IMG/VR virus record: IMGVR_UViG_3300049489_001135
Span: 1 to 55,003 of that record
Direction: 5' to 3' (one strand)
Source: a virus
Length of the DNA stretch: 55,003 nt
Position numbers and translations under genes: made by a program. The notes under the pieces were generated by a model, which was given only the letters and a program-made list of their open reading frames with translations, was not told the origin of the DNA and made no database searches. Positions 1,835 through 52,805 of this stretch are shown here, one piece after another; positions within the stretch are counted from its first letter, which is position 1; each line of letters starts with the position of its first letter.

Positions 1835-2029
1835 TTATCTGGCGTTCCTTTCTAAGCTTAGCTCTTGTAAGCAACGTATTGCTACAATAAAACTTTTGTC
1901 ATTAGCACGGTCCATGATTTTGTGAATCTTAAACATGCCATGTAGCGCAATGAATTGCAAGATAATTAGCACGGCTAGTCCCAATATGAGACAATTTTTA
2001 GCAGATTTAAAAAACTGTAGAATTTGCAT
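1835..2029 (-). CDS. Single-pass membrane protein, 64 aa
   Basis: The product has a positively charged N-terminus, a strong hydrophobic segment at about residues 14-31 (LILGLAVLIILQFIALHG) and a mixed-charge cytoplasmic or periplasmic tail. It follows the TolA-like gene by one base, so it is presumably made together with it, and the two may act together in the envelope. No family is recognised. Confidence 0.55.
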   Translation of the reverse strand: MQILQFFKSAKNCLILGLAVLIILQFIALHGMFKIHKIMDRANDKSFIVAIRCLQELSLERNAR

Positions 2030-2030
2030 A

Positions 2031-2576
2031 TCAATCCTTATGTTTAATAGTAAAGGTCCATTCTAACTCAAATAGACCGTTTTTGGAAATTAAATTTTTA
2101 GGTACTGGCAGCAAGTGGCAGGTCCAGAGAGTATCTATAGCAACTTGTTTAAGCTTTTGTGAACAATTATTTTGCACAGTTACAATGCTGATAATTGTGC
2201 CGTTTGGTAGTGCGTCTATATTTAGCACGGTGCTACAAGCTTTTACAGGAAGCCGGGCTCGGTCAATATTTGAGTGCCAGTTTGGGTCAATATGGGCATG
2301 TAGTCGTTCAATGAAATGCAGGGCCGTTAAGGTTGTGCCTAGGTCGCGTTTTTGTTTAAGGTAGTCGGGGCTACCTACTCGAGGGCCGCTTGCCGGATTT
2401 AAGTTTAGCTTCTTGCCAGCAGGTTTTTTGGTTTTCTTTTTGTCCCCGGTGCTATAATTTATTGCAATCGGCTGCAACTGTCTTGCATTCTTCCGCGTAC
2501 CAAAGCTATACAACGCAGCACCGTGTAGCAGCGAAGAAAAAAGAAGACAAAAAACCACGCGCCGATTAGTCGCCAA
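2031..2576 (-). CDS. TolA/TonB-like envelope protein
   Basis: This 181-aa protein has the layout of a TolA/TonB energy transducer: a short cytoplasmic N-terminus, one membrane segment (about residues 8-25), a basic KKKTKKPAGKK linker (46-56) and a compact C-terminal domain (about 85-181). The C-terminal domain resembles TolA domain III: an ERLHAHIDPNW helix, then Cys114, a strand-turn-strand with a PNG turn, and Cys138, close to the spacing of the disulfide-forming pair in Escherichia coli TolA, followed by a helix and LLPVPK, matching the TolA IPKPP region. TolA links inner and outer membranes and is a docking site for filamentous phages and group A colicins. In a phage it could mask or compete with host TolA to exclude other phages; that is inference. 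The linker is far shorter than in bacterial TolA. Confidence 0.6.
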   Translation of the reverse strand: MATNRRVVFCLLFSSLLHGAALYSFGTRKNARQLQPIAINYSTGDKKKTKKPAGKKLNLNPASGPRVGSPDYLKQKRDLGTTLTALHFIERLHAHIDPNWHSNIDRARLPVKACSTVLNIDALPNGTIISIVTVQNNCSQKLKQVAIDTLWTCHLLPVPKNLISKNGLFELEWTFTIKHKD

Positions 2577-2659: not shown

Positions 2660-3370
2660 TTAATGACTGTCTTCTCGCATAAAATCTGGAAAGTTTTCTG
2701 ACCACCAGCCCGGGTCTAACCGTAGTCCATTGGGCAGCTCAACTGGCATACCGCGTACCATGGATTCGTCGGCCAATTGATGCTTAGTATAATCAGGATG
2801 TAGCATGCCGTTTGCATGTGACTTATTCCAAGCCAGCATGTCGTTCGATAGCTTTTGTATGTGGTAGTATAGCCAGTATAGGCTTTTTCGCAATTTATAT
2901 TTTTGCCGACACCCGGCATGAATCTCGCGATACGTTTTGCCCTCATTTAGCCGGGCCAATATATAGGCGTCCATTCTGCGGCTTTTAAATTGATAATGCG
3001 TAAGGTAATTTTGAAGCAGGCGAAAAAACTGGGCACGGCTTGGGCTCCAAGGTTTGCCTTTAGCCATACTACCTCGCAAGTGGTCTGAGTTCTGACCAAG
3101 GCCGGTTTTATGGTCTACCCATTCAATATCTTTGAAGCCCATTTTGGCTAATTTATCGTACCATTTTTTTTGCAATTTGGTAAATTTTGAAGGGTCGGTT
3201 TTTGTAGCAGCGGGGATGGGGAGGCCAGCGGCGCGAAGCTTTTTCTTGGTTATTTTTCTTTGCCGTTTTTTGGTATTCTTTGTTAGCCCGCCCTGCTTAT
3301 ATTGCTTATGGGGACCGTTTATATTTGAGGAAAATTTTTTGGTGGGGGGTGCCTTCTTTTTTTGTGCCAC
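2660..3370 (-). CDS. Basic DNA-binding-like protein, 236 aa
   Basis: The first 50 residues are very basic (several KKK and KKRQRK runs), as in proteins that bind nucleic acid. A later stretch, NEGKTYREIHAGCRQKYKLR (about 145-165), looks like a helix-turn-helix of the kind found in phage regulators and small terminases. It is the first minus-strand gene next to the divergent control region at 3371-3961, a natural place for a regulator. No family was recognised; the regulator role is inferred from position and charge. Confidence 0.55.
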   Translation of the reverse strand: MAQKKKAPPTKKFSSNINGPHKQYKQGGLTKNTKKRQRKITKKKLRAAGLPIPAATKTDPSKFTKLQKKWYDKLAKMGFKDIEWVDHKTGLGQNSDHLRGSMAKGKPWSPSRAQFFRLLQNYLTHYQFKSRRMDAYILARLNEGKTYREIHAGCRQKYKLRKSLYWLYYHIQKLSNDMLAWNKSHANGMLHPDYTKHQLADESMVRGMPVELPNGLRLDPGWWSENFPDFMREDSH

Positions 3371-7297: not shown

Positions 7298-7726
7298 GTG
7301 GCCGGATTGCTTAATTGTAGTCCGGTTTTTGGCATTTGCACGCCTACAGATTCAATGCTTAAAATTTTGCATAATGGTGCTACAAAGCACGGTATAGAGC
7401 CCTCATTAGTGGTTGCAATTGCTAATGTTGAGTCTTGCTTTGGCAAATATAAGCACAATAAACATTCGCATGATTTTGGTTTAATGCAGATTAACCGCAG
7501 AAATTTGGCATCTATTGGACTATCAGAGCATGAGGCATTGCACAATGATAGCAGAAATTTGCACGCGGCGTTGACCATGCTACAAAAATTGCAACGTCAA
7601 GGCTTAAGGCGTGGCGTGCCGTGGCAGTGTCGCTATAACATAGGCAACCAGACTTCGAATGCAGCTTTAAAAGCCTGCAATTCCTATTTAAGCAAATTAA
7701 AAAATGCTGGATGGAACGAACAATAA
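7298..7726 (+). CDS. Lytic transglycosylase-like protein (SLT/lysozyme fold), possible lipoprotein
   Basis: The protein shows the SLT goose-type lysozyme core: NVESCFGKY with the probable catalytic Glu45, then DFGLMQINRR (59-68), and helical repeats up to the C-terminus with two late cysteines. It would cleave peptidoglycan glycan strands in the periplasm. The start given is the GTG at 7298. The frame is open upstream to 7253 and reads IKKTILVAGLLNC across that point, a good lipoprotein signal with an LLNC lipobox, but no ATG, GTG or TTG lies upstream. The true start may be a rare codon. Homologues act in conjugation or phage entry; here it is an early gene, so peptidoglycan remodelling or lysis are both possible. 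Confidence 0.65.
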   Translation: MAGLLNCSPVFGICTPTDSMLKILHNGATKHGIEPSLVVAIANVESCFGKYKHNKHSHDFGLMQINRRNLASIGLSEHEALHNDSRNLHAALTMLQKLQRQGLRRGVPWQCRYNIGNQTSNAALKACNSYLSKLKNAGWNEQ

Positions 7727-8597: not shown

Positions 8598-9128
8598 ATG
8601 CAAGAAACTATAGTGCGAATGCTAGGAATTATTTCAGTGGTTACTGTAGCATTAATTATGCTTATGCTACTTACTGCATGCGGTAGTAAGCCGAAAGTTA
8701 GTAACCAGGATGAACAAATTAAGCAGTTACAACGACAATTGCAGCAGCAAATAGTTTTGGGCCAGGAGCAGGCAGAGTTATTGCAGGAAATTTTAGCAGC
8801 GGATGCGGGGACGCAGGCACAGCTTGTTTATGTAACCCAAGCGCTAAATGTTGTTCAAGGAAACGTGAACTCATTGCTTCTTCAGGTAGCTGAATTGCAA
8901 GATTATAGTAACATTGTTGAAATGATAGACCCTTGTGGTGATAATATTAACAAGATTGATGAAGTCTTGTTGGCATTAAGCAGTGGCGAAATTTTGGCTA
9001 GCTTTTCAGACAATGCTAATGGCTTGAATACTAGATTTGGTTTGTTAAAAGCTGGTAATTATGTTACAACTGATGGGACAAATTGTCATTTTCAAGTGCT
9101 GTCTAATGGCAATGTGGTTTGGAACTAA
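8598..9128 (+). CDS. Lipoprotein with coiled coil, 176 aa
   Basis: A TAAAAAGGAG ribosome site precedes the ATG. The N-terminus has a hydrophobic signal ending in LLTAC, a lipobox (Cys28), followed by a glutamine-rich coiled coil (about residues 38-110) and a small globular C-terminus with two cysteines. It is predicted to be outer-membrane or periplasm anchored. It could be a spanin-like or superinfection-exclusion lipoprotein, but the coiled coil plus lipobox alone cannot decide. It is probably co-expressed with the protease lipoprotein. Confidence 0.55.
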   Translation: MQETIVRMLGIISVVTVALIMLMLLTACGSKPKVSNQDEQIKQLQRQLQQQIVLGQEQAELLQEILAADAGTQAQLVYVTQALNVVQGNVNSLLLQVAELQDYSNIVEMIDPCGDNINKIDEVLLALSSGEILASFSDNANGLNTRFGLLKAGNYVTTDGTNCHFQVLSNGNVVWN

Positions 9129-9137
9129 GGAGTAAAT

Positions 9138-9371
9138 ATGAATGCAAAAGAAGCAAATAATTTGGCAAAACAAGGTGATTTTGGAAATCAATTACTTAGT
9201 GCTATTAGCGACATTAAAGAAGCTGCTAAAGAAGGTTCGTTTAGGGTGCTATTAAATTCTAATTCATATACAAGTGAGGCACTACGTTTAGAACTAATTA
9301 AATTAGGGTATTTTGTAAGATTTGGTTCAGATAATACTTTGATTGTAAGTTGGGCAGATGTTAAGGATTAA
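9138..9371 (+). CDS. Small protein, 77 aa, unknown function
   Basis: An AAGGAGTAAAT ribosome site precedes the ATG. The product begins MNAKEANNLAKQGDFGNQLL and reads as a helix followed by a beta-rich segment (SYTSEALRLELIKLGYFVRF). It overlaps the end of the opposite-strand M15 peptidase gene by 11 bases. Function unknown. Confidence 0.55.
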   Translation: MNAKEANNLAKQGDFGNQLLSAISDIKEAAKEGSFRVLLNSNSYTSEALRLELIKLGYFVRFGSDNTLIVSWADVKD

Positions 9372-9777
9372 ATTGTCGTTTTCGGCAATTGGGACGTTTA
9401 ATGGTAGGCCGATTGTTTGTGTCTATATGTGACCAATTTTTCGTAGCGGTAGGTTGTTCTTGCCACAAATTAAGCTTTTCAAGTAAGTCTTGTTGAGGGT
9501 CTAAAGAAAGCCACGCATCAATAGCACCATCAGGGTCAGCAAAATCACAAGCTTTGCACACCATATGAGCGGATTTTTTAGCACCATTTGCGGCTGCATT
9601 TTGGGCCGGGCTTCTATACCCGCTAGAAACTTTAAAAGGCTTGCCACCAGCTTTTAGATACGCAGTCTCAAGGTCAAATAACGCTGCATGTAAGGCTTTA
9701 AGATTGGCCTTTTGGTCTGCAGGTAATTCATCATATTTTATACGCCCCATGAGGATAGCGTCTATTGTCAAGGCCAT
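9361..9777 (-). CDS. M15-type peptidase, probable endolysin
   Basis: With the ATG at 9777 the protein is 138 aa and starts MALTIDAILMGR, as is usual for the phage M15A peptidase family. The zinc-site motifs are present: SSGYRSPAQN (51-60), SAHMVCKACDFAD with His71 and Asp78, and WSHID with His117. These enzymes cut peptide crosslinks in peptidoglycan (DD- or LD-carboxypeptidase or endopeptidase activity). No signal peptide is visible, so release would need a holin. It is the only minus-strand gene in a long plus block, implying separate timing. A longer TTG start at 9798 is possible but overlaps the divergent promoter. Confidence 0.75.
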   Translation of the reverse strand: MALTIDAILMGRIKYDELPADQKANLKALHAALFDLETAYLKAGGKPFKVSSGYRSPAQNAAANGAKKSAHMVCKACDFADPDGAIDAWLSLDPQQDLLEKLNLWQEQPTATKNWSHIDTNNRPTIKRPNCRKRQFNP

Positions 9778-9792
9778 GGTATGGCTATTTGT

Positions 9793-9820
9793 TTGCAATT
9801 TTTGTAGCTTATGATATGCT
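9793..9820 (+). promoter_or_regulatory. Plus promoter TTGCAA-N16-TATGCT
   Basis: TTGCAA (9793-9798) and TATGCT (9815-9820) are separated by 16 bases, with a spacer ending in ATGA. It closely resembles the promoter at 53225-53252, also TTGCAA...TGATATGCT. Transcription would start at or near 9827, the A of the next ATG, so the first message may be leaderless. Confidence 0.55.
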
Positions 9821-16156: not shown

Positions 16157-16393
16157 ATGAAATTACACACTTTTTACATGCACAAAGATGCCATGGACAT
16201 TTGTTTATACACAAATAAGATTTCCGACTTGGGCAATAAATTACTGCTACATGTTGCATGGTATAATCTGGGGTATAATGGCTTTCCTTGGCTTATTCAA
16301 GAAGAATATATAACCTTAAAAAATACAGAAAATTGGGTTGACATATCTGATAAATTTATGCATACTAGACTTAAATCAGGATTACCACAATAG
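16157..16393 (+). CDS. Small protein, 78 aa, unknown function
   Basis: I chose the ATG at 16157 over 16145 because GGAG sits at the right distance before it. The product begins MKLHTFYMHKDAMDICLYTN and has aromatic-rich, beta-like segments (GFPWLIQEEYITL). No family is recognised. Confidence 0.55.
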   Translation: MKLHTFYMHKDAMDICLYTNKISDLGNKLLLHVAWYNLGYNGFPWLIQEEYITLKNTENWVDISDKFMHTRLKSGLPQ

Positions 16394-16400
16394 GAGATAT

Positions 16401-16931
16401 ATGAGCGGCAAAAAATTTGACCAAGAAAAACCAGATATGAGTTTACTAAGCCCATTTGCTTTAGAAGAAATTGCTAAAGTAATGACATATGGTAAACAAA
16501 AATATGGTGCCAATAATTGGCGGTCAGGTTTAGCGTTTTCTCGGCTTATTGCTGCTGTATTACGGCATGTAAATGCATACCAAAAAGGTGAAATGGTTGA
16601 CCCTGAGACAGGCCTATCTCATCTTGCTCATGCAAGTTGCGGTCTTTTTATGATGTTAGAATTTGAAGCAACGTGTCCAGCATTAAATGACCTTTATCAT
16701 TGCAATAAAAATGGTATTAGAGAAATGTATGAAGAACAATTAGAAGAAATGGAAAAAGGTATTAAAAATATTATGAATGAATTAAGTGTTCCAAAAATTG
16801 TTGTAGAATCTGAGCAACTAGAACTACCAATAGACCCTTGGCCAAATGTAGAATTTACAGAGCAAGACAGTATGCCTAAATGTCCAGTAGTTGACACTTA
16901 TAAACAATATACACCAAAGATGCAGCCATGA
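16401..16931 (+). CDS. dATP/dGTP pyrophosphohydrolase-like (MazG/MazZ-type)
   Basis: With the ATG at 16401 (AGGAG site) the protein is 176 aa. Its first 100 residues contain KKFDQEKPDMSLLSPFALEE, GKQKYGANNWRSG and LRHVNAYQKGEMVDPETGLS, then HLAHASCGLFMMLE, the pattern of the phage dATP/dGTP diphosphohydrolase N-terminal domain (all-alpha NTP-PPase, related to MazZ). Such enzymes hydrolyse dNTPs to dNMPs. MazZ supplies dGMP for 2-aminoadenine synthesis in Z-genome phages, but no purZ or datZ is present in this window, so a nucleotide-pool role is more likely. The C-terminal 75 residues are unassigned. Confidence 0.7.
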   Translation: MSGKKFDQEKPDMSLLSPFALEEIAKVMTYGKQKYGANNWRSGLAFSRLIAAVLRHVNAYQKGEMVDPETGLSHLAHASCGLFMMLEFEATCPALNDLYHCNKNGIREMYEEQLEEMEKGIKNIMNELSVPKIVVESEQLELPIDPWPNVEFTEQDSMPKCPVVDTYKQYTPKMQP

Positions 16932-21461: not shown

Positions 21462-21826
21462 ATGAAATTAGATGCAAGTGAAATTGAAATAAATGGGGTA
21501 AAATATGTGCCAAAATCTTCACAAGATGCGCAAGTTATGGCAAAAAATACTGATGGTTTAAGTTATGTAATTATTCGGAGCCAATCAGCAGGCGTATTTG
21601 CGGGGTATCTAAGCAAAAGAACTGGCGACGAAGCAGTATTATTAGAAAGCCGACGAATTTTTTATTGGACTGGCGCAGCAACTTTGTCACAATTAGCTAT
21701 TGATGGAACTTCTATTCCAACAAAATGTCAATTTCCAGAAGCAATTTCAAGCCATACAATATTGCAAGTTATTGAAGTAATTCCTGTAACAGAAAAAGCA
21801 AAAAAATCTATTGAGAGTGTAAAAGT

Positions 21827-21839
<13 letters not shown>
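21462..21839 (+). CDS. DUF6948-like protein
   Basis: The product begins MKLDASEIEINGVKYVPKSS and has AGVFAGYLSKR, RRIFYWTGAATLSQLAIDGT and SHTILQVIEVIPVTEKA, which match the pattern I associate with the phage DUF6948 domain. Function is unknown. It has the same leader as the genes at 3962 and 22975 (an 18-base block with AGGAG). Its last codons overlap the start of the GX-repeat frame at 21827. Confidence 0.55.
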
Positions 21840-22156
<317 letters not shown>

Positions 22157-22161
22157 AATAT

Positions 22162-22190
22162 TTGACAAATAGGCTACAACAAGATAGTAT
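22162..22190 (+). promoter_or_regulatory. Promoter TTGACA-N17-TAGTAT
   Basis: TTGACA (22162-22167) and TAGTAT (22185-22190) with a 17-base spacer form a good promoter directly after the GX repeat. It serves the small genes from 22218 onward, isolating them from any transcription trouble in the repeat. Confidence 0.6.
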
Positions 22191-22217
22191 AAATTAAGTA
22201 CAAAATTTGGAGTAACT

Positions 22218-22403
22218 GTGGCATATAAATTTATAAAAACAATTGACCCGAAAAATAAGCATAGTTTAGCAAACATTGTATTTGAATTGCCAGAAAATGA
22301 CTATGATTTAACAAAATTGCTAGAAGAATTTCGATGCTTTTTAGCAGCTTGTAGTTTTTCTGTGCCTGGAACCATTGAATATATTGAGCAGGAGGAGGAT
22401 TAA
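22218..22403 (+). CDS. Small protein, 61 aa
   Basis: The start is GTG behind TTGGAGTAACT. The product begins MAYKFIKTIDPKNKHSLANI and has FELPENDYDL and a helical C-terminus. No family is recognised. Its stop overlaps the next ATG region. Confidence 0.5.
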   Translation: MAYKFIKTIDPKNKHSLANIVFELPENDYDLTKLLEEFRCFLAACSFSVPGTIEYIEQEED

Positions 22404-43678: not shown

Positions 43679-43927
43679 TACAGATTTATACCCAAATTTT
43701 ACATATACGCGACAATCAAATCCAAAAATTCCATAGTTTATAGGAGCATTTAAAAAGTCTTTTAATTGCAATTTACGGCCTAGTTGCTGTTCTATACAAG
43801 TAATACATATACATTTTTTACGCTCCTGTTCAGTAGTAAGCTTATTTCATAAATTGAATTTTAACATATATGGCTCATTAGAACCATTACATCTATAACA
43901 ATTACTTCCGTACCAAGATTTTTTCAT
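43658..43927 (-). pseudogene. Zinc-finger gene with in-frame TGA
   Basis: From an ATG at 43927 the frame encodes SNCYRCNGSNEPYM and, after an in-frame TGA at 43847-43849 (codon 27), continues without a stop for 62 codons: TEQERKKCICITCIEQQLGR and KDFLNAPINYGIF. The two CxxC pairs on either side of the TGA form a zinc-finger unit, so a single protein was probably coded. It is most likely a pseudogene, although TGA read-through is possible. It overlaps the GIY-YIG stop by 4 bases. Confidence 0.55.
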
Positions 43928-44580
43928 TTTTGCTCCATGATATTATCTATTACTATAAAAACATAGCCCGCAGTATGTGTACGCTTGCCATTTACAACAT
44001 CTCGAACCGATTCTCTTCTTAGGTTAAAATGCTTTGCAGCTCTAGATATAGAATTAAACTCTAGTCCACTTTTCAGTTCTTTAATCTTTTTTGAATTAGT
44101 AGCCTGTAGTGATTTCCTAATTTTATCTTCTTCTGTATATACTGGCCTAGATGGTTTTTCTAGTTTAGCTAATCGCATAAGATTAAGCGTTTCCTCTGAA
44201 AAACAGCCCTTTCTGCCTTTATTCCAAGGTTCGATATGAGTCGTACTGCGCATAATTTTCATGCGTTCGCCAGATATTTTTCTTTGTTCTGCAGTATTTG
44301 TACCATATCCTGGTTTTTTATTTAGCCCAATATCGTATGCTTTTAAAGTTTTAATATAATACATTTCAGCATCTCTAGATTCCTGATAAGTAGCAACTTC
44401 AACCAAAATCTCCCAAATCCAATCTTCCATTTTAGTAGTTTGCAAAAATGTTTGAAAAGCCTTTTGCTTTTTATCAGTAAGGCCCCAATGTTGACCAATT
44501 CTAATTTCTAATTTTTGACTAGTCTGTCCAATATAGAACTTTCCAGATGGTTTATGAGTAGCTTTATAAACAATAAACAT
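43924..44580 (-). CDS. GIY-YIG homing-type endonuclease
   Basis: The 218-aa protein has VYKATHKPSGKFYIGQT (GIY-YIG core), a conserved Arg and a Glu in DAEMYYIKTL, then a NUMOD-type segment (WNKGRKGCFSEETLNLMRLA) and a C-terminal HTH-like NUMOD1 part (SISRAAKHFNLRRESVRDVV). These are the modules of free-standing phage homing endonucleases, which cut DNA of related phages to spread. It has its own promoter and lies directly after the capsid gene terminator, so it is a self-contained mobile cassette. Confidence 0.85.
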   Translation of the reverse strand: MFIVYKATHKPSGKFYIGQTSQKLEIRIGQHWGLTDKKQKAFQTFLQTTKMEDWIWEILVEVATYQESRDAEMYYIKTLKAYDIGLNKKPGYGTNTAEQRKISGERMKIMRSTTHIEPWNKGRKGCFSEETLNLMRLAKLEKPSRPVYTEEDKIRKSLQATNSKKIKELKSGLEFNSISRAAKHFNLRRESVRDVVNGKRTHTAGYVFIVIDNIMEQK

Positions 44581-44696: not shown

Positions 44697-45902
44697 CTAG
44701 CTCAAACGTAGATTACAGTTCCAACCTGGCGCTCGACTTCCAACCTGCGCATAATAGCCCACGCGTACAGTAACCGCATCTGCATCTGAAGCGCGTAACA
44801 TCTTAAGACCATCGGTATCGATGATTTGAGGTGCACGGCCCAAGCTATACAATTTCCAAACGTTCATCTGTAACAAGAAGCAACGGTCAGAAGGACAGTT
44901 TTGGTCAGCAATAACTTTGATTGGTCCACGAGGTCCGTTTACAAGCATTCCACGGAAACCGATTTCAGCATTAGCTCTAAGGTCAACGTATTGAACTTTA
45001 GAACCAAGAGCTTTTTCAAGGTCAGCGTATTTGCTGTAAGACATGAAAGCGTGGTCAGGTTTTCCACCTTCGCGAGCAACGCGTGAAGCAGCACTGATAA
45101 GAGCTTCTTCGATTGGTAAATCAGAACCATCAAAGCGAACGCCAGCAAGGCGAGTAACGTCTGAAGTTCTGTCAACACCAAAAAATGGAGCATTTGTTGG
45201 AGCGCTATTTGGCAACCAAGCTTGAAGTCCAGAAAGACCCAAGTCATAGTTTCCTTGAACAAAGATGTAATCATTAGCAGCAACACCAGCACCACCAGCA
45301 ATGGCAGTCATGGGCTCAACTGTAAGAACACCGTTGTCACGGTCTACGGCTTGTACTTGAACTCGGCCAGACTTAACTGTACCACCACCGTCTGCGGTAG
45401 AGAATACAAGTTGTTGTCCAACTTCAAAGTTAGTAACATCATCTGGAACGGTCAATTGGATAGAAGTACCAGTAGTTGCAGATTCATTTTGTCCAATAGA
45501 ACCAGAACCGCTGCGATACATTTGGATTGCAAGCATACGTGCAGAAGAGTGGATTGCTCCATCGATTTCTGTAGTAGCAGCTTCCATAAACGCATTAGCA
45601 TTACCAATAGAAGCTTTAAGAGTTTCGTTATCGATAGAAGCAATACTATATGCTCTTACACGAGTAAGTACGAAATCTTTTAACTTGCTAGAAGTTTGGT
45701 TAGCTTGTGCAGTTTGGAAAATAGAAGAAACACCCTGGGGGTCTCCATAGATGATTGGAATTGGTAAGTTTTTACCACCAAAATCAGTCATTTTTGGCAT
45801 AAGAGCCAATAGAGGGTTATCTTGATATGTCATATTTTCGACGCGGTCTGCAGTGTAATGCTGCTTAAGTGCTGCGTCAAATGAGCTTAAATCTAAAGCC
45901 AT
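44697..45902 (-). CDS. Major capsid protein
   Basis: The 401-aa protein has the layout of HK97-fold capsid proteins of podoviruses: N-terminal FDAALKQHYTADRVENMTYQ, a DFVLTRVRAYSIASIDNETL stretch, a beta-rich centre with an inserted Gly-rich loop (TGTSIQLTVPDDVTNFEVGQ) and C-terminal ASRVAREGGKPDHAFMSYSK and PIKVIADQNCPSD. It follows the scaffold-like gene and is flanked by a terminator, as expected for the most abundant protein. A GCCTA/TAGGC hairpin lies just upstream of its ribosome site (about 45922-45934). Confidence 0.85.
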   Translation of the reverse strand: MALDLSSFDAALKQHYTADRVENMTYQDNPLLALMPKMTDFGGKNLPIPIIYGDPQGVSSIFQTAQANQTSSKLKDFVLTRVRAYSIASIDNETLKASIGNANAFMEAATTEIDGAIHSSARMLAIQMYRSGSGSIGQNESATTGTSIQLTVPDDVTNFEVGQQLVFSTADGGGTVKSGRVQVQAVDRDNGVLTVEPMTAIAGGAGVAANDYIFVQGNYDLGLSGLQAWLPNSAPTNAPFFGVDRTSDVTRLAGVRFDGSDLPIEEALISAASRVAREGGKPDHAFMSYSKYADLEKALGSKVQYVDLRANAEIGFRGMLVNGPRGPIKVIADQNCPSDRCFLLQMNVWKLYSLGRAPQIIDTDGLKMLRASDADAVTVRVGYYAQVGSRAPGWNCNLRLS

Positions 45903-46986: not shown

Positions 46987-48849
46987 CTATTCTGGTAATA
47001 TAGGCTGAACTGGCGTGGCTTGTTCAGCGTTTGGTCCGGCTAGGTTAGCTGGCACCAAGTATTGTTCTTCTTGCCCGACTTGAGGCAATGCCGGTGCGTT
47101 TGGCTGTGCACTGGCAGTTGCAGCTTTTTGCAACAATGCTGCGGCATCTTCAATCCATCTGCGAAACAGTTCTAATTTTTCATCTGGTGCACCTTGACTG
47201 CGGTACATAAGATAAGCTTGTTGCATTTTTGTAATGCCCATTTGCAAGTTTTGATAAGGCTCGGGAGTTTGATAATTTCCTTCATCAATAATCATTTCAA
47301 TGGAGCGCTCAATGTCTTCAACGCCTGCGTTGTTAAAATTATAATACTGTTGCAAATCAGGGAAATTAAGCAATTTCATGCCGTCTTCTTTGCCAATAAA
47401 TCCTGCAGCAAGTAATTCTTGTATGTCCTGTAATCGGCCAGCAGGCGTGCTTGAAAGACTAGACGTTGGAAATACTTGCATAATATATTGGTCATCTTCC
47501 ATGCTTACATCTTTCCACTTTATTGTTCGTAAAAAGTGGTTGTCTTTAGCACGGATTTTATAATCTGGGTCATCTTCAGCAAGGTCTTTTACTAAGTCAA
47601 TCATGATTTTAGCAGCGAGCATGAATGTTTGCTCATAGCGCTTAGCAACTTCCATAAAACGTTCAGATTCTATGTCGTTAAATTCGCGCAAAGCTTTGCC
47701 AGAATCAAGGCCAGAAGGCTTTTGCGCATTAGCTGCTAATTGAGAAACACCAGCAATCTCATAGGCGCGTGCATATAATCTGTCTAAATGGTTAAAAAGT
47801 TCTGGAGGAATATTTGCCAGTGGTCCATGAGTAGGCGGTTGGCCAACATACTTTACAATACCGCCAATTTTATTATTCAAGTGCGCCGAAACAATGTTTG
47901 AAGAAGCTTCTACAAAGATTTTAGGCACAGAAACTAGGTGCATGCTTACTTGTATTGTACGAAGTATTTTATTAATTTCAAGCTGTAGGCCAGTCAATTG
48001 TTCAGCAAGCCCTTGTCCCCAAAATCCTAAAGGCCGTTCGCACCAACGGTGTAGCACGAAAGGAAAATAATCTTTATTATACTCTTCTTCAAATAATGTA
48101 GCAGTTTCTATGCAGATAGTATGTCTACCGTCTTTAGCTTTTTTACCGCTTGGTAAATGCCAGGATTCTACAACAAGTACCATGTTTGATTTTTTATCAT
48201 AAGTATTAGAAGCCCAACTTGAGCTACTTTCAGAGCCTAGTGCGCTGATTTGTTCTGCAAATTTTGGAAAAGCAGATTTTAGCACGTCTACATTAATAAA
48301 CTTTTTCTGGTGCATGCTGCGTGGCTCGCCATAAATACTTTCTGAATCGTCAACAACTAGCTCGCCAATAAAAATGCGCTCGGCTTTTACTTCACCGTCT
48401 TGCTTGTATATTTTAATAGCCCCGGTGCCATTAATGCAGCTATCTTTAAAAGCTTGGGCAGATTTTGCATAATATTTACATGCGTCAAATTGGCCTTCAA
48501 TAAATTGGGTCAATTTCATTGCACGGCGCTGCATAGTAAAATCGCCACCATCAGTCAAGAAAGATGGTTTAGGCATGTTTTTGGTAATTTTTGAAGTAAC
48601 GGTATCAACCATGCTCTGTATAATATTCCAAGTTACACGTTGCTGGCCAAGGTCAGTGCTTTCTGTGCGTAAGGTATTATAGGTGCGCAAAGCATACGGC
48701 TCTAAATTGCCATATAATCGCATATTACGATAGTTAGAAGAATCTATGTAGGATTGGTCGGCATCTAGCCGCTTTACAATAGCAAATACGGAGGCTGCAA
48801 TATCTGCTTTATCTTGTCTCCACCAATAGTAATCTTTGTTTTGGTACAT
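46987..48849 (-). CDS. Portal protein
   Basis: The 620-aa protein has podovirus portal features: DYYWWRQDKADIAASVFAIV, WNIIQSMVDTVTSKITKNMP, the RWCERPLGFWGQGLAEQLTG stem-loop region, GVSQLAANAQKPSGLDSGKA and a C-terminal coiled region, in positions typical of the family. It forms the dodecameric ring at the head vertex and docks terminase. It lies downstream of terminase and upstream of scaffold. Confidence 0.85.
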   Translation of the reverse strand: MYQNKDYYWWRQDKADIAASVFAIVKRLDADQSYIDSSNYRNMRLYGNLEPYALRTYNTLRTESTDLGQQRVTWNIIQSMVDTVTSKITKNMPKPSFLTDGGDFTMQRRAMKLTQFIEGQFDACKYYAKSAQAFKDSCINGTGAIKIYKQDGEVKAERIFIGELVVDDSESIYGEPRSMHQKKFINVDVLKSAFPKFAEQISALGSESSSSWASNTYDKKSNMVLVVESWHLPSGKKAKDGRHTICIETATLFEEEYNKDYFPFVLHRWCERPLGFWGQGLAEQLTGLQLEINKILRTIQVSMHLVSVPKIFVEASSNIVSAHLNNKIGGIVKYVGQPPTHGPLANIPPELFNHLDRLYARAYEIAGVSQLAANAQKPSGLDSGKALREFNDIESERFMEVAKRYEQTFMLAAKIMIDLVKDLAEDDPDYKIRAKDNHFLRTIKWKDVSMEDDQYIMQVFPTSSLSSTPAGRLQDIQELLAAGFIGKEDGMKLLNFPDLQQYYNFNNAGVEDIERSIEMIIDEGNYQTPEPYQNLQMGITKMQQAYLMYRSQGAPDEKLELFRRWIEDAAALLQKAATASAQPNAPALPQVGQEEQYLVPANLAGPNAEQATPVQPILPE

Positions 48850-49172: not shown

Positions 49173-50621
49173 TTAAAATTCATCATCTGTTACGCCAATA
49201 TCGTCAAAATCAGCTACATCGGTAAATTCTGACATGCCAGATTTTCGTTGTTCAAACTTTTCCATTTCTTTTTGCTCTAACATGTCCATGTACTTATCAG
49301 TATTTATTGCTATTTTTTCTGCAGGAGATTGCTTAAAGTAGTGGCGACATTCACGCCAAGCGTATAGCACGGAATCTCCAACGTCGGTATGGTAAACGTC
49401 CGAAATTTTTGGCCGGGCTGGGTCATCGTAGTTCCATTGCACGAGATTACAATCTTCAGCAAAGCGACTGTTTGGCATTGCTTTAAATTTACCGCTGCGT
49501 AAATCATCGTTTAGCATGGCAATAAACTCAAATTTTCTAGCCTTGTCTGCGGCATCAATTGGCAACTGATGCCGGATACGTATCTCTTCTTGAATTTTTT
49601 TACCCAGTGCTCCAGCATCCATTACCATTTTTACTGGCTTATACTTGCTCTGTAATGCCTTAATTTGTGTAACTAAACCAGTAATGTCCTGCTTAGTGGT
49701 AATCAATTCTTCTACCAAGTAAACTTCGCCGGTAAAGTGGCTGTAACCTAGCACGGCTATGGCATCTGCGTCCTTATAGCCAATATCTATGCCAAATATG
49801 TAGGTAAGATTTTCTGGTATGCTAAAGGTAGTGTTTAGCACCGCGTCAAATTTAAAAACAAGACTGTCTAAATCTTTAATCCATTGGCCAAAATATTCTC
49901 GCTGAATACTTGCATCATTTGTAGTCAAACCACGGCGTGCTGCTAGTTCCTTGATAATATCCAGCGGTTCTTTGCCAGATTTAAGCTTAATATGCGGATT
50001 TTGTTGCATGGTCCAGTGATGATGGCTCCACTCAGGATTGTGTGATGCATCATAGAAATATCCGGCAGGAATTGGGCCAGGTGTGCCAATAAGTATTAGC
50101 TCACCATAGTAATCGGTTAAAGCAGGCTCAATAATGTCCTCAACTAGGTCTTTAATATAAGCACGGAAGGCTTGGGATTCATCTATATACACCTTGCGAA
50201 ATGAAAGTCCACGAAATTTTTCGGCTTCGCCTGCATCTTTAGCACCAGATACGTAGATAATGTTACCATTTGGCATGTGCAGTGATAAATCTGAGTTATC
50301 AGGATGCCCTTGCAAAGCATATTCTTTATTTATCTTTAAAATTTCTCGCCAAATAATACGTTTAGCATTTATTCGACTAAGTGTGATATAGGCTACATCA
50401 CCTTTTTTAGTCATGGCCGTGTTCATTAAATCTGCAGCACATGCTAGTGTTTTTCCGCTTCTGCGGGAGCAAACTGCAGTTTTAAATCTAGCTGGGTCAT
50501 TAATGAATGCAATTTGCTTGTCAAAACAGAAATCTTCAATAGTAAAGCTACGAGCCAAGGACTTAGCCTTAGCTCGCTTTGCAATTTCCTGCTTTAAAAT
50601 ATCAGACCTAATGCGACTCAA
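49173..50621 (-). CDS. terL: Terminase large subunit
   Basis: The 482-aa protein has Walker A CSRRSGKTLA (Lys57), Walker B KVYIDES (Asp147, Glu148), motif C GELILIGTPGP, and an RNase H-like nuclease with GIDIGYKDADAIAVLG (about 273-288), VMDAGALG and a C-terminal HTDVGDSVLYAW. It packages DNA into the head and cuts concatemers. The start is TTG at 50621 behind CGGGGAACAT. The nuclease acidic residues all appear present. Confidence 0.9.
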   Translation of the reverse strand: MSRIRSDILKQEIAKRAKAKSLARSFTIEDFCFDKQIAFINDPARFKTAVCSRRSGKTLACAADLMNTAMTKKGDVAYITLSRINAKRIIWREILKINKEYALQGHPDNSDLSLHMPNGNIIYVSGAKDAGEAEKFRGLSFRKVYIDESQAFRAYIKDLVEDIIEPALTDYYGELILIGTPGPIPAGYFYDASHNPEWSHHHWTMQQNPHIKLKSGKEPLDIIKELAARRGLTTNDASIQREYFGQWIKDLDSLVFKFDAVLNTTFSIPENLTYIFGIDIGYKDADAIAVLGYSHFTGEVYLVEELITTKQDITGLVTQIKALQSKYKPVKMVMDAGALGKKIQEEIRIRHQLPIDAADKARKFEFIAMLNDDLRSGKFKAMPNSRFAEDCNLVQWNYDDPARPKISDVYHTDVGDSVLYAWRECRHYFKQSPAEKIAINTDKYMDMLEQKEMEKFEQRKSGMSEFTDVADFDDIGVTDDEF

Positions 50622-50932: not shown

Positions 50933-51679
50933 TTACTCCGATTTCTTGCCGATAGAAGGCAGTTTATATTGAACTCTTGCATCACTAACACCAACTGGAG
51001 CCCGAAATAGTGGGCAGCCAGAAAACTTAAATGTAATAGCACCAAACATTGATTGCATGGATACGGTATTCATTTTCATAATAAGCTCTTGAGAGCAAAC
51101 AATGTCTACAATGTTATCGGCAGCCCGAAAGCGAATAGAATCTTCTGCGTCCAACCATAATTCTTTGCTTACCAAACCTTTATAGTCAGATAATTGCATT
51201 TGCATACGCTTAGCATTTGCCACTTCAAGGCTAAGTACTCGGCGTTTTACATAATACAGTGTTGTCTCAAGAGAACCTACTTCTACAGTGCCTTCAAGGC
51301 CAGCATACGCTTGGTGAAACATTAAAGTGCCGTTTTCTGTAACAAGACGCCTGCCTGGTAATTGTTCTACTATTGCAGAAGCCATGCTGGCTGCAAAAAT
51401 GCTGACAGTATGTAAATTAGGAATTAATTTAGCAAATTGAATAAACATAAAGCCTGCTTCAATAGAGCCGCCCGGAGAATCTAGCACCAAATACAGTGGA
51501 TAGTTTTTTGTGCCGCGTTTTAGCACCAGTTTAGCAAGTTCAAGCTGCGCAGTTATAGCACTACGCCCAGAAACTTCGCCACGATACACAACAGTATTAT
51601 TGCTGTTTAATTGTACTTGTTCTGTAGCAGCAAAACTACTCAGCGGCAACAGCAGGGCTAGTGTTAGTAACATTTTCAT
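50933..51679 (-). CDS. Periplasmic ClpP-like serine protease
   Basis: The protein begins with a signal peptide (MKMLLTLALLLPLSSFAATE, cleavage near 17-18) and continues as a ClpP-fold with a complete triad: VSIFAASMAS (Ser98), TLMFHQAYAG (His122) and SKELWLDAED (Asp177). DSPGGSIEAGFMFIQ is the usual ClpP strand. It is predicted to act in the periplasm, where ClpP normally is not found. It lies directly after a second, cytoplasmic ClpP-fold gene. It may process an envelope or virion protein; target unknown. Confidence 0.65.
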   Translation of the reverse strand: MKMLLTLALLLPLSSFAATEQVQLNSNNTVVYRGEVSGRSAITAQLELAKLVLKRGTKNYPLYLVLDSPGGSIEAGFMFIQFAKLIPNLHTVSIFAASMASAIVEQLPGRRLVTENGTLMFHQAYAGLEGTVEVGSLETTLYYVKRRVLSLEVANAKRMQMQLSDYKGLVSKELWLDAEDSIRFRAADNIVDIVCSQELIMKMNTVSMQSMFGAITFKFSGCPLFRAPVGVSDARVQYKLPSIGKKSE

Positions 51680-51856: not shown

Positions 51857-52333
51857 CTATATTAGTTCGGTTGCTAAATTAAGTTTAAGTGCTTCTTCAG
51901 GCGATAAGTAAGTTTCGGCAGCATGTAATTTAAGCCAGGTTTTAGCATCGGTTCCAGTGTATTCTTGTAATAGTTCGCACCAAAACTCTTCGCTTTTTTC
52001 CATGTCTTTTGCAAATTTTCTTATTTCAGTACTTTTTCCTTTAGTTTTATCAGAACTTTCATGAACGAGCATAACCGCCGCTTTAGAAAGTCTGCGCACA
52101 TTGCCAGCAGCAAATACAATAACAGCCGTAGAATGTACAGCACCAAAACCATACGTATGAACATCCCTTCCAGATGCCTTAATAAAGCCTGCAATTGCGC
52201 GACCAACATGCTCATCTCCACCGTCCGAGTTTATAATAACATTAATAGGACTTTCAGTTTGTTTAGTAAATTTTTTTACAAAATATTGAAACATTGCATC
52301 GTCAATGTTACCAGAAATGATAATATTACTCAT
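51857..52333 (-). CDS. Cytoplasmic ClpP-fold protein
   Basis: With the ATG at 52333 (AAAGG site, overlap with the GNAT-like gene by 8 bases) the protein is 158 aa. It contains VIINSDGGDEHVGRAIAGFI, GAVHSTAVIVFAAG (Ser68) and MLVHESSD (His91); the third residue of the triad appears to be Glu instead of Asp in AAETYLSPEEA. ClpP-fold proteins near phage terminase or portal genes are often prohead proteases. No signal peptide is visible, so it differs in location from its neighbour. Confidence 0.6.
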   Translation of the reverse strand: MSNIIISGNIDDAMFQYFVKKFTKQTESPINVIINSDGGDEHVGRAIAGFIKASGRDVHTYGFGAVHSTAVIVFAAGNVRRLSKAAVMLVHESSDKTKGKSTEIRKFAKDMEKSEEFWCELLQEYTGTDAKTWLKLHAAETYLSPEEALKLNLATELI

Positions 52334-52805
52334 CTTGAACCTTTGGCTTGCTAAGTTCATACGCATAATAGCTTAGATATGGGTTATATACCATTTTGTA
52401 CTTTTTCTCTAGTGGCTCACTGGTGAATGTTCTGTGCGTGTAAAATAATGGTGTTTCTTTGGTAATACTTAATGCTTCAAGTAGCATTTTGGCGACACCA
52501 AATTTTCGGTAAATTTCTTTTACATATATAAAGTGAATTACTGGCACGTCTTCTACAGATTCGTGAGCAATGTAGCCATAAATTTGAGAAATGTCTTGGG
52601 CGTTGCAGGCAATAATAATTTCGGCCTGCTTACAAAGACCCTCTAGCACTTTGTGATGTTGTGCAAAATAAACTGGGTTATCACAGCCGCGAGTATTTTG
52701 ACTATGTCTATAGCAGCGAAGCCAAGAATTAAATACAAAGGGAACGTCTACTTCAGTGGCGGGTCGAAGTCTTACTTGATTCTTCAGGTCCGTTTTTTCG
52801 CTCAT
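52326..52805 (-). CDS. GNAT-like acetyltransferase, 159 aa
   Basis: The protein has the GNAT pattern: RLRPATEVDVPFVFNSWLRC, EVDVPFVFN, IACNAQDISQIYGYIAHESV and VKEIYRKFGVAKMLLEAL, where the basic FGVAKML loop would bind acetyl-CoA. It begins behind AAAAAGGAGCAAAG. Phage GNAT proteins can modify host or virion components; the substrate is not known. It is the second GNAT in the late region. Confidence 0.6.
   Translation of the reverse strand: MSEKTDLKNQVRLRPATEVDVPFVFNSWLRCYRHSQNTRGCDNPVYFAQHHKVLEGLCKQAEIIIACNAQDISQIYGYIAHESVEDVPVIHFIYVKEIYRKFGVAKMLLEALSITKETPLFYTHRTFTSEPLEKKYKMVYNPYLSYYAYELSKPKVQDE

What the first reader, a model, noticed from the sequence alone, without database searches (positions are those of the whole stretch)
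2031..2576. Phage-encoded protein with the look of TolA domain III
Seen: one membrane span, a Lys-rich linker, and a C-terminal domain with two cysteines (114 and 138) at close to the TolA spacing, a PNG turn and an LLPVPK end. Known: TolA domain III binds filamentous phage g3p and colicins. Inferred: a phage copy could act as decoy against other phages or change the Tol system at lysis. The linker is much shorter than the roughly 250-residue helix of host TolA, so it might be a dominant-negative.
Basis: partly seen in the sequence, partly recalled or inferred. Interest (0 to 1): 0.68.

Follow-up and report, generated by a model that had tools for sequence, protein, structure and literature searches.

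The report
Phage-encoded miniature TolA-like envelope protein
A phage from an uncultured sample carries a small, very divergent copy of the business end of TolA, a protein bacteria use to keep their outer membrane intact and that some toxins and phages exploit to enter; it probably lets the phage interfere with that system, though this is untested.

Summary
The minus-strand ORF 2031-2576 (181 aa, TTG start) has one N-terminal membrane segment (residues 7-25), a basic linker, and a C-terminal domain (about 86-181) that is a divergent TolA domain III. A profile from 30 gammaproteobacterial TolA proteins, chosen without this protein, ranks it first of 6,047 sequences (15.7 bits; best shuffle 6.9). 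A TonB profile does not find it. HHalign agrees (TolA 73%, TonB 7%). A model built on a TolA alignment has pLDDT 78, and its 25 best PDB matches are all TolA- or TonB-type C-terminal domains. It passes no curated family cut-off.

The anchor is less certain: it has the Ser-x3-His of the TolA/TonB membrane helix, but a TolA membrane-helix profile does not support it, and the linker charge sits badly with a periplasmic orientation.

The gene lies in a variable part of the late gene cluster; 15 related contigs show no relative. Phage-borne TolA III is not unprecedented: enterobacterial prophages (phrog_5772, unannotated) and many plasmids carry it as lipoproteins. The membrane-anchored form in an unrelated phage is a new variant.

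Most likely it competes for the host's TolA partners and disturbs Tol-Pal; direction and benefit are inferred.

The parts
2031..2576 (-). tolA-like gene, 181 aa, TTG start (GTG at codon 7 possible), TGA stop
   Evidence: best and only stop-free of six frames by the phage's own codon usage, though below core genes and like its conserved neighbour 2660-3370
2502..2558 (-). predicted membrane segment, residues 7-25, with S14-x3-H18
   Evidence: Kyte-Doolittle 1.82; motif in 29 of 29 TolA and 8 of 137 control N-terminal segments; TolA membrane-helix profile gives -0.7 bits
2322..2498 (-). basic linker, residues 27-85
   Evidence: 14 K/R, 3 D/E
2034..2321 (-). TolA domain III-like domain, residues 86-181, predicted alpha-beta-beta-alpha-beta
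   Evidence: Profile 15.7 bits vs best shuffle 6.9; HHalign 73%; model pLDDT 78, pTM 0.68; PDB matches 1-25 all TolA/TonB type
2163..2237 (-). stretch C114 to C138 enclosing the PNG turn (2199-2207)
   Evidence: Sequence; alignment to TolA
2097..2114 (-). LLPVPK (155-160), counterpart of the SPLPVPxD motif of gammaproteobacterial TolA
   Evidence: Alignments
1835..2029 (-). 64-aa single-span protein, start 1 nt after the tolA-like stop with AAGGA upstream; probably translationally coupled, role unknown
   Evidence: Sequence TAAGGATTGATATG and hydrophobic segment 13-31; no family match
2660..3370 (-). 236-aa gene upstream, conserved in 6 of 7 related contigs and near the terminase module in several; marks one side of the variable region
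   Evidence: tblastn synteny

Best explanation
The gene encodes a miniature TolA: an N-terminal membrane anchor (or uncleaved signal), a short basic linker, and a TolA domain III fold meant to sit in the periplasm. Made from the late gene cluster, it would offer the host's TolA partners (TolB's N-terminal strand, and TolQ-TolR if the Ser/His of the anchor is functional) a second domain III. Strand augmentation on the phage copy would divert them from host TolA, so Pal is no longer mobilised properly and the outer membrane weakens late in infection. Entry of Tol-dependent bacteriocins or filamentous phages would be blocked as a by-product or as the main benefit. Shown here: domain homology, predicted fold, hydrophobic segment, accessory position in the late cluster. 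Inferred: periplasmic orientation, partners, interference rather than support, and benefit to the phage.
For: TolA profile, HHalign and pairwise Z. The only NCBIfam match for the whole protein is tolA_full at its domain III end (E 0.079), and the only Pfam match for the C-terminal piece is TonB_C (E 0.13). Fold search returns only TolA/TonB C-terminal domains with confidence. A search of 369 genomes with the phage domain hit TolA genes: two hits lie inside TolA genes found independently (vs 49), and further ones encode TolA on reading. The gene sits in a variable stretch between a conserved gene and the terminase module. Precedent: in Escherichia phage mEp460_ev081 two tandem TolA III lipoprotein genes stand directly before the holin-lysozyme-Rz cassette, so TolA III genes in late or lysis regions occur elsewhere. 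Literature: blocking TolA-TolB strand addition gives a full tol phenotype with leaky outer membrane (PMC4339652); sequestering TolA with phage pIII lowers colicin A sensitivity and phage uptake (PMC10424213).
Against: No binding partner or phenotype is shown. The linker is strongly basic on the side that should be periplasmic, against the positive-inside rule. The anchor does not score as a TolA membrane helix; only S and H of the SHLS motif are in place (L becomes F25, S becomes N29). The phage's recognisable lysis genes (SLT 7298-7726, M15 peptidase 9361-9798) are not adjacent. No relative is known, so there is no conservation evidence of function.
Confidence: 0.42

Rival explanations
1. A decoy that guards the infected cell: the phage TolA III binds Tol-dependent bacteriocins or filamentous phage coat proteins and keeps them from host TolA, without harming the Tol system.
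For: TolA III is the known target of g3p and colicins A and N; the gene is accessory; lipoprotein TolA III genes occur on many plasmid records and in prophages, where exclusion functions are common.
Against: The domain is about 11-23% identical to known TolA III, so recognition by the same ligands is doubtful. Exclusion is expected early or in a prophage, whereas this gene lies with late genes.
Confidence: 0.2
2. A working mini-TolA that couples to host TolQ-TolR and keeps the envelope intact or alters Tol output during infection.
For: S14-x3-H18 matches the essential part of the SHLS motif (H22 of TolA needed for TolQ binding, PMC12965293); shortened TolA keeps partial function; ExbBD can also work with TolA.
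Against: Membrane-helix profile not met; motif chance about 6% in controls; domain II missing; basic linker.
Confidence: 0.13
3. A lysis accessory: together with the coupled 64-aa membrane protein it acts at the outer-membrane step in the manner of a spanin pair, using the TolA fold as a bridge.
For: Tight coupling of the two membrane-protein genes; no clear spanin found elsewhere (only weak Rz-like matches for 8598-9128).
Against: Neither protein matches a spanin family; lysis genes lie 5-7 kb away on other transcripts; the 64-aa protein has no lipobox.
Confidence: 0.12
4. A TonB-type transducer that energises an outer-membrane transporter with ExbB-ExbD during infection.
For: TonB_C is the only Pfam match for the isolated domain (E 0.13); TolA and TonB C-terminal domains share the fold.
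Against: A TonB profile built here does not find it (1.1 bits; HHalign 7%); no proline-rich spacer; LLPVP is the TolA form.
Confidence: 0.06
5. No selected function: a chance or decaying open frame, or a captured host fragment on its way out.
For: Weak codon bias (-0.026 against a minimum of 0.093 in core genes); no homologue found in relatives.
Against: The conserved neighbour 2660-3370 scores the same (-0.009); 181 codons without a stop, tight packing, and a complete recognisable fold with the motif residues.
Confidence: 0.07

Closest known systems
TolA domain III (TIGR02794; PF06519), gammaproteobacterial type with SPLPVP
   Same: Residues aligned over the whole domain: W100, PNG turn, LPVP, first cysteine; predicted fold
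   Different: About 11-23% identity, below every curated cut-off; no helical domain II; not in a tolQRAB-pal cluster; phage-borne
phrog_5772 / Escherichia phage mEp460_ev081 'TolA protein' and its tandem copy
   Same: Phage-borne, short protein made mostly of a TolA III domain, placed in the late region
   Different: Those are lipoproteins close to E. coli TolA (60% identity over the domain); this one has a membrane anchor without lipobox, and a profile of enteric TolA does not detect it
Plasmid-borne TolA III lipoproteins of Enterobacteriaceae (example L114)
   Same: Mobile TolA III domain on a short anchor
   Different: Lipobox anchor, enteric sequence type, plasmid context
TonB C-terminal domain (PF03544)
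   Same: Same overall fold, and an N-terminal anchor with S-x3-H followed by GA as in E. coli TonB (TonB anchor from memory)
   Different: TonB profile not matched; no proline-rich spacer

Membership tests
TolA | C-terminal domain III detectable by a TolA profile | tested here: met
   15.7 bits, E 0.0038 in 6,047 sequences, best shuffle 6.9; HHalign 73%, E 3e-5
TolA | Passes the curated cut-off of TIGR02794 or PF06519 | tested here: not met
   TIGR02794 12.2 bits against 59.45; PF06519 no match
TolA | alpha-beta-beta-alpha-beta domain III fold | tested here: met
   Model pLDDT 78, all 25 best PDB matches TolA/TonB type; caveat: alignment rows were enteric TolA, and the single-sequence model has low confidence (35) with a similar order of elements
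TolA | Membrane helix with SHLS motif contacting TolQ | tested here: inconclusive
   S14 and H18 in place, L and S not; profile -0.7 bits; H-anchored matrix exceeds 98.7% of shuffles
TolA | Long helical domain II | tested here: not met
   Residues 27-85 only, basic, without a long predicted helix
TolA | Encoded beside tolQ, tolR, tolB, pal | tested here: not met
   Phage gene neighbourhood
TolA | Binds TolB and TolQ-TolR | not testable with these tools
   Needs experiment
phrog_5772 phage TolA III lipoproteins | Match to the PHROG profile | tested here: not met
   No PHROG match at E up to 1, while E. coli TolA and the mobile copies match
phrog_5772 phage TolA III lipoproteins | Lipoprotein signal peptide | tested here: not met
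   No lipobox in residues 1-30 (sequence)
TonB | TonB C-terminal profile | tested here: not met
   1.1 bits with a profile of TonB loci; PF03544 E 0.13, below cut-off
Spanins | Match to spanin families | tested here: not met
   No match for the gene or its 64-aa neighbour

The most novel reading that the evidence does not exclude
A lytic phage makes a membrane-anchored mini-TolA that docks on the host TolQ-TolR motor and TolB and shuts Tol-Pal down on schedule, so that force transduction to the outer membrane is a host process phages target directly; enterobacterial prophages do the same with lipoprotein TolA III proteins placed just before their lysis cassettes.
Probability: 0.2. Interest if true: 0.8.

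Novelty: new variant of a known kind. Interest (0 to 1): 0.5.

Why it matters
Tol-Pal is known as an entry route for filamentous phages and bacteriocins. If tailed phages also carry copies of its central partner-binding domain, the system is a target during infection as well. Together with the unannotated TolA III lipoproteins of enterobacterial prophages (phrog_5772), the case gives a testable set: does a mobile TolA III protect against Tol-dependent invaders, weaken the outer membrane for lysis, or both? It also shows that such copies escape Pfam and PHROG searches.

Tried and rejected
Direct homologue searches found nothing: viral contigs, genome contigs, annotated phages by tblastn, 15 contigs sharing its terminase, and viral contigs with a TolA-profile query (14 pattern matches, none confirmed). 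A mixed alignment led by the phage domain was too divergent to search with. The single-sequence structure model is too poor to use by itself. The claim that the anchor is a TolA membrane helix was tested and not supported, so coupling to TolQ-TolR is kept as a possibility only. TonB membership rejected. Circularity of the contig was tested by reading across its ends: the open frame does not gain an upstream start, so closure is not shown. Host: the capsid protein was not found in 398 genomes of the phylum nor in annotated phages, so the host is unknown; a Gram-negative host is assumed. Literature searches found no paper on a phage-encoded TolA, within an open-access library only.

Full report
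Setting. The window is a 55,003-base viral record with tailed-phage genes: terminase (49173-50621), portal (46987-48849), a capsid protein (44697-45902), DNA polymerase, helicase/primase and lysis enzymes; several of these names are read from sequence features and conserved order, not from a database match. Fifteen other viral contigs share its terminase at 47-63% identity. GC content is 38.5% and no terminal repeat was found.

The gene. The finding is complement(2031..2576): 181 aa, TTG start immediately after an in-frame TAG, TGA stop. It is the best and only stop-free of the six frames by the phage's own codon usage. Its score (-0.026) is below core genes (minimum 0.093) but close to that of the conserved neighbour 2660-3370 (-0.009), so the whole stretch is atypical rather than non-coding. 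A 64-aa single-span protein gene starts one base after its stop, with AAGGA upstream.

Anatomy. Residues 7-25 form one hydrophobic segment. Residues 27-85 are a basic linker (14 K/R, 3 D/E). The rest is the C-terminal domain, with C114, PNG 124-126, C138, C153 and LLPVPK 155-160.

Is the domain TolA III? No curated model passes its cut-off. But the only NCBIfam match for the whole protein is tolA_full, at its domain III end (residues 90-161 to 282-346 of 362, E 0.079), and the only Pfam match for the C-terminal piece is TonB_C (E 0.13). I collected 30 diverse gammaproteobacterial TolA proteins with TIGR02794, independently of the phage protein. Their domain III profile ranks the phage protein first of 6,047 sequences (5,000 shuffles of it plus ORFs of this and related phages) with 15.7 bits, E 0.0038, against 6.9 for the best shuffle. 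Adding three TolA found with the phage protein itself raises this to 18.9 bits, which is partly circular. HHalign gives 73% probability, E 3e-5 for TolA and 7%, E 0.005 for TonB. Pairwise Z-scores reach 9 for TolA chosen without it. A profile of TonB proteins gives 1.1 bits and a profile of enteric TolA 0.3 bits, so it resembles the SPLPVP type of TolA specifically.

A search of 369 gammaproteobacterial genomes with the phage domain gave hits in 29 genomes, about the number expected by chance at that threshold, but they are not random: two lie inside TolA genes found independently (G046, G075), and the three hits L121, L124 and L129 (the last is the G046 one) read as TolA.

Fold. Folded alone, the confidence is too low (pLDDT 35), although the order of elements is helix, two strands, helix, strands. 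With 25 enteric and prophage TolA III rows, the domain folds with pLDDT 78 and pTM 0.68 as alpha-beta-beta-alpha-beta. The 25 best PDB matches are all TolA- or TonB-type C-terminal domains, and no predicted viral protein matches well. The alignment helps to impose the fold, so this is consistent support, not independent proof.

Anchor. All 29 TolA membrane segments aligned have [SAT]-x3-H; so does this protein (S14, H18), but so do 8 of 137 control segments. A TolA membrane-helix profile gives -0.7 bits; a matrix anchored on the histidine exceeds 98.7% of shuffles. Of the SHLS motif (S18, H22, L29, S33 in E. coli TolA; PMC8928145) only S and H are in place. H22 is the residue whose loss breaks TolQ binding (PMC12965293). 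The hydrophobic stretch ends early after the histidine and is followed by a basic linker, which disfavours but does not exclude a periplasmic C-terminus. Coupling to the motor is therefore open, and cleavage to a soluble periplasmic form is also possible.

Place in the genome. The 236-aa gene upstream has relatives in six of seven related contigs, lying in the same orientation before the acetyltransferase-ClpP-terminase module in several of them. In the window the TolA-like gene and several small genes stand between these two markers, if the contig ends are neighbours. In relatives the interval holds nothing, or other genes. It is thus a variable, accessory stretch of the late cluster. Closure of the contig could not be shown. 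That the cluster is expressed late is inferred from its structural genes.

Precedents. Phage-borne TolA III exists. PHROG phrog_5772 (function unknown) matches E. coli TolA 333-421 and two short TolA III proteins of a Klebsiella genome. Escherichia phage mEp460_ev081 carries a gene annotated 'TolA protein'. It encodes a lipoprotein plus TolA III, and the next gene, annotated hypothetical, is a second TolA III lipoprotein (PF06519, E 1e-14); both stand directly before an S21-type holin, lysozyme and Rz genes. Forty viral contigs hold relatives, and 1,299 plasmid records hold the domain, though some large records in that collection look like chromosomes carrying ordinary tolA. The window protein is not a member of that family by profile and has no lipobox.

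Mechanism. The most economical reading is that the phage protein offers TolA's partners a second domain III. Blocking TolA-TolB strand addition by point mutation gives a full tol phenotype with outer-membrane leakage (PMC4339652), and sequestration of TolA by phage pIII lowers colicin A sensitivity and phage uptake (PMC10424213). So competition could weaken the envelope late in infection, shut out Tol-dependent invaders, or both. A supporting rather than interfering role cannot be excluded.

Verdict. Observation confirmed; TolA III identity supported at the level of a divergent homologue; function inferred. New variant of a known kind.

Noticed in passing
L116:5833-6261 and L116:6412-6807 (Escherichia phage mEp460_ev081): Two tandem TolA III lipoprotein genes directly before an S21-type holin, lysozyme and Rz/Rz1 cassette; the second is annotated only as hypothetical but matches PF06519 at E 1e-14.
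   Followed up: partly
L114:1393-1764 and L115:1423-1887 (Klebsiella genome): A TolA III lipoprotein on a small contig, followed by a short TonB-like reading frame, and a TolA III protein with an ordinary signal peptide in what looks like a prophage: further ways of delivering the same domain.
   Followed up: partly
window 50933-51679 (-): A ClpP-fold protease with an apparent N-terminal signal peptide; relatives L004:8991-9671 and L012:7820-8608 also begin with signal-like segments, so an exported ClpP-like protein may be conserved in this phage group. A second ClpP-like gene lies at 51857-52366.
   Followed up: no
L012:8849-11335: The terminase of this related phage is 828 aa and seems to hold an intein-like insertion after its ATP-binding region.
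   Followed up: no
window 43924-44580 (-): A GIY-YIG-like homing endonuclease next to the capsid gene, absent from the same place in most relatives.
   Followed up: no
window 21728-22276: A long repetitive stretch (Ala/Gly/Val repeats on the minus strand, over and beyond the end of the plus-strand gene 21462-21839), probably a tandem repeat.
   Followed up: no
window 16338-16931 (+): dATP/dGTP diphosphohydrolase-type protein (PF18909, E 2e-30), suggesting altered nucleotide pools or modified DNA.
   Followed up: no
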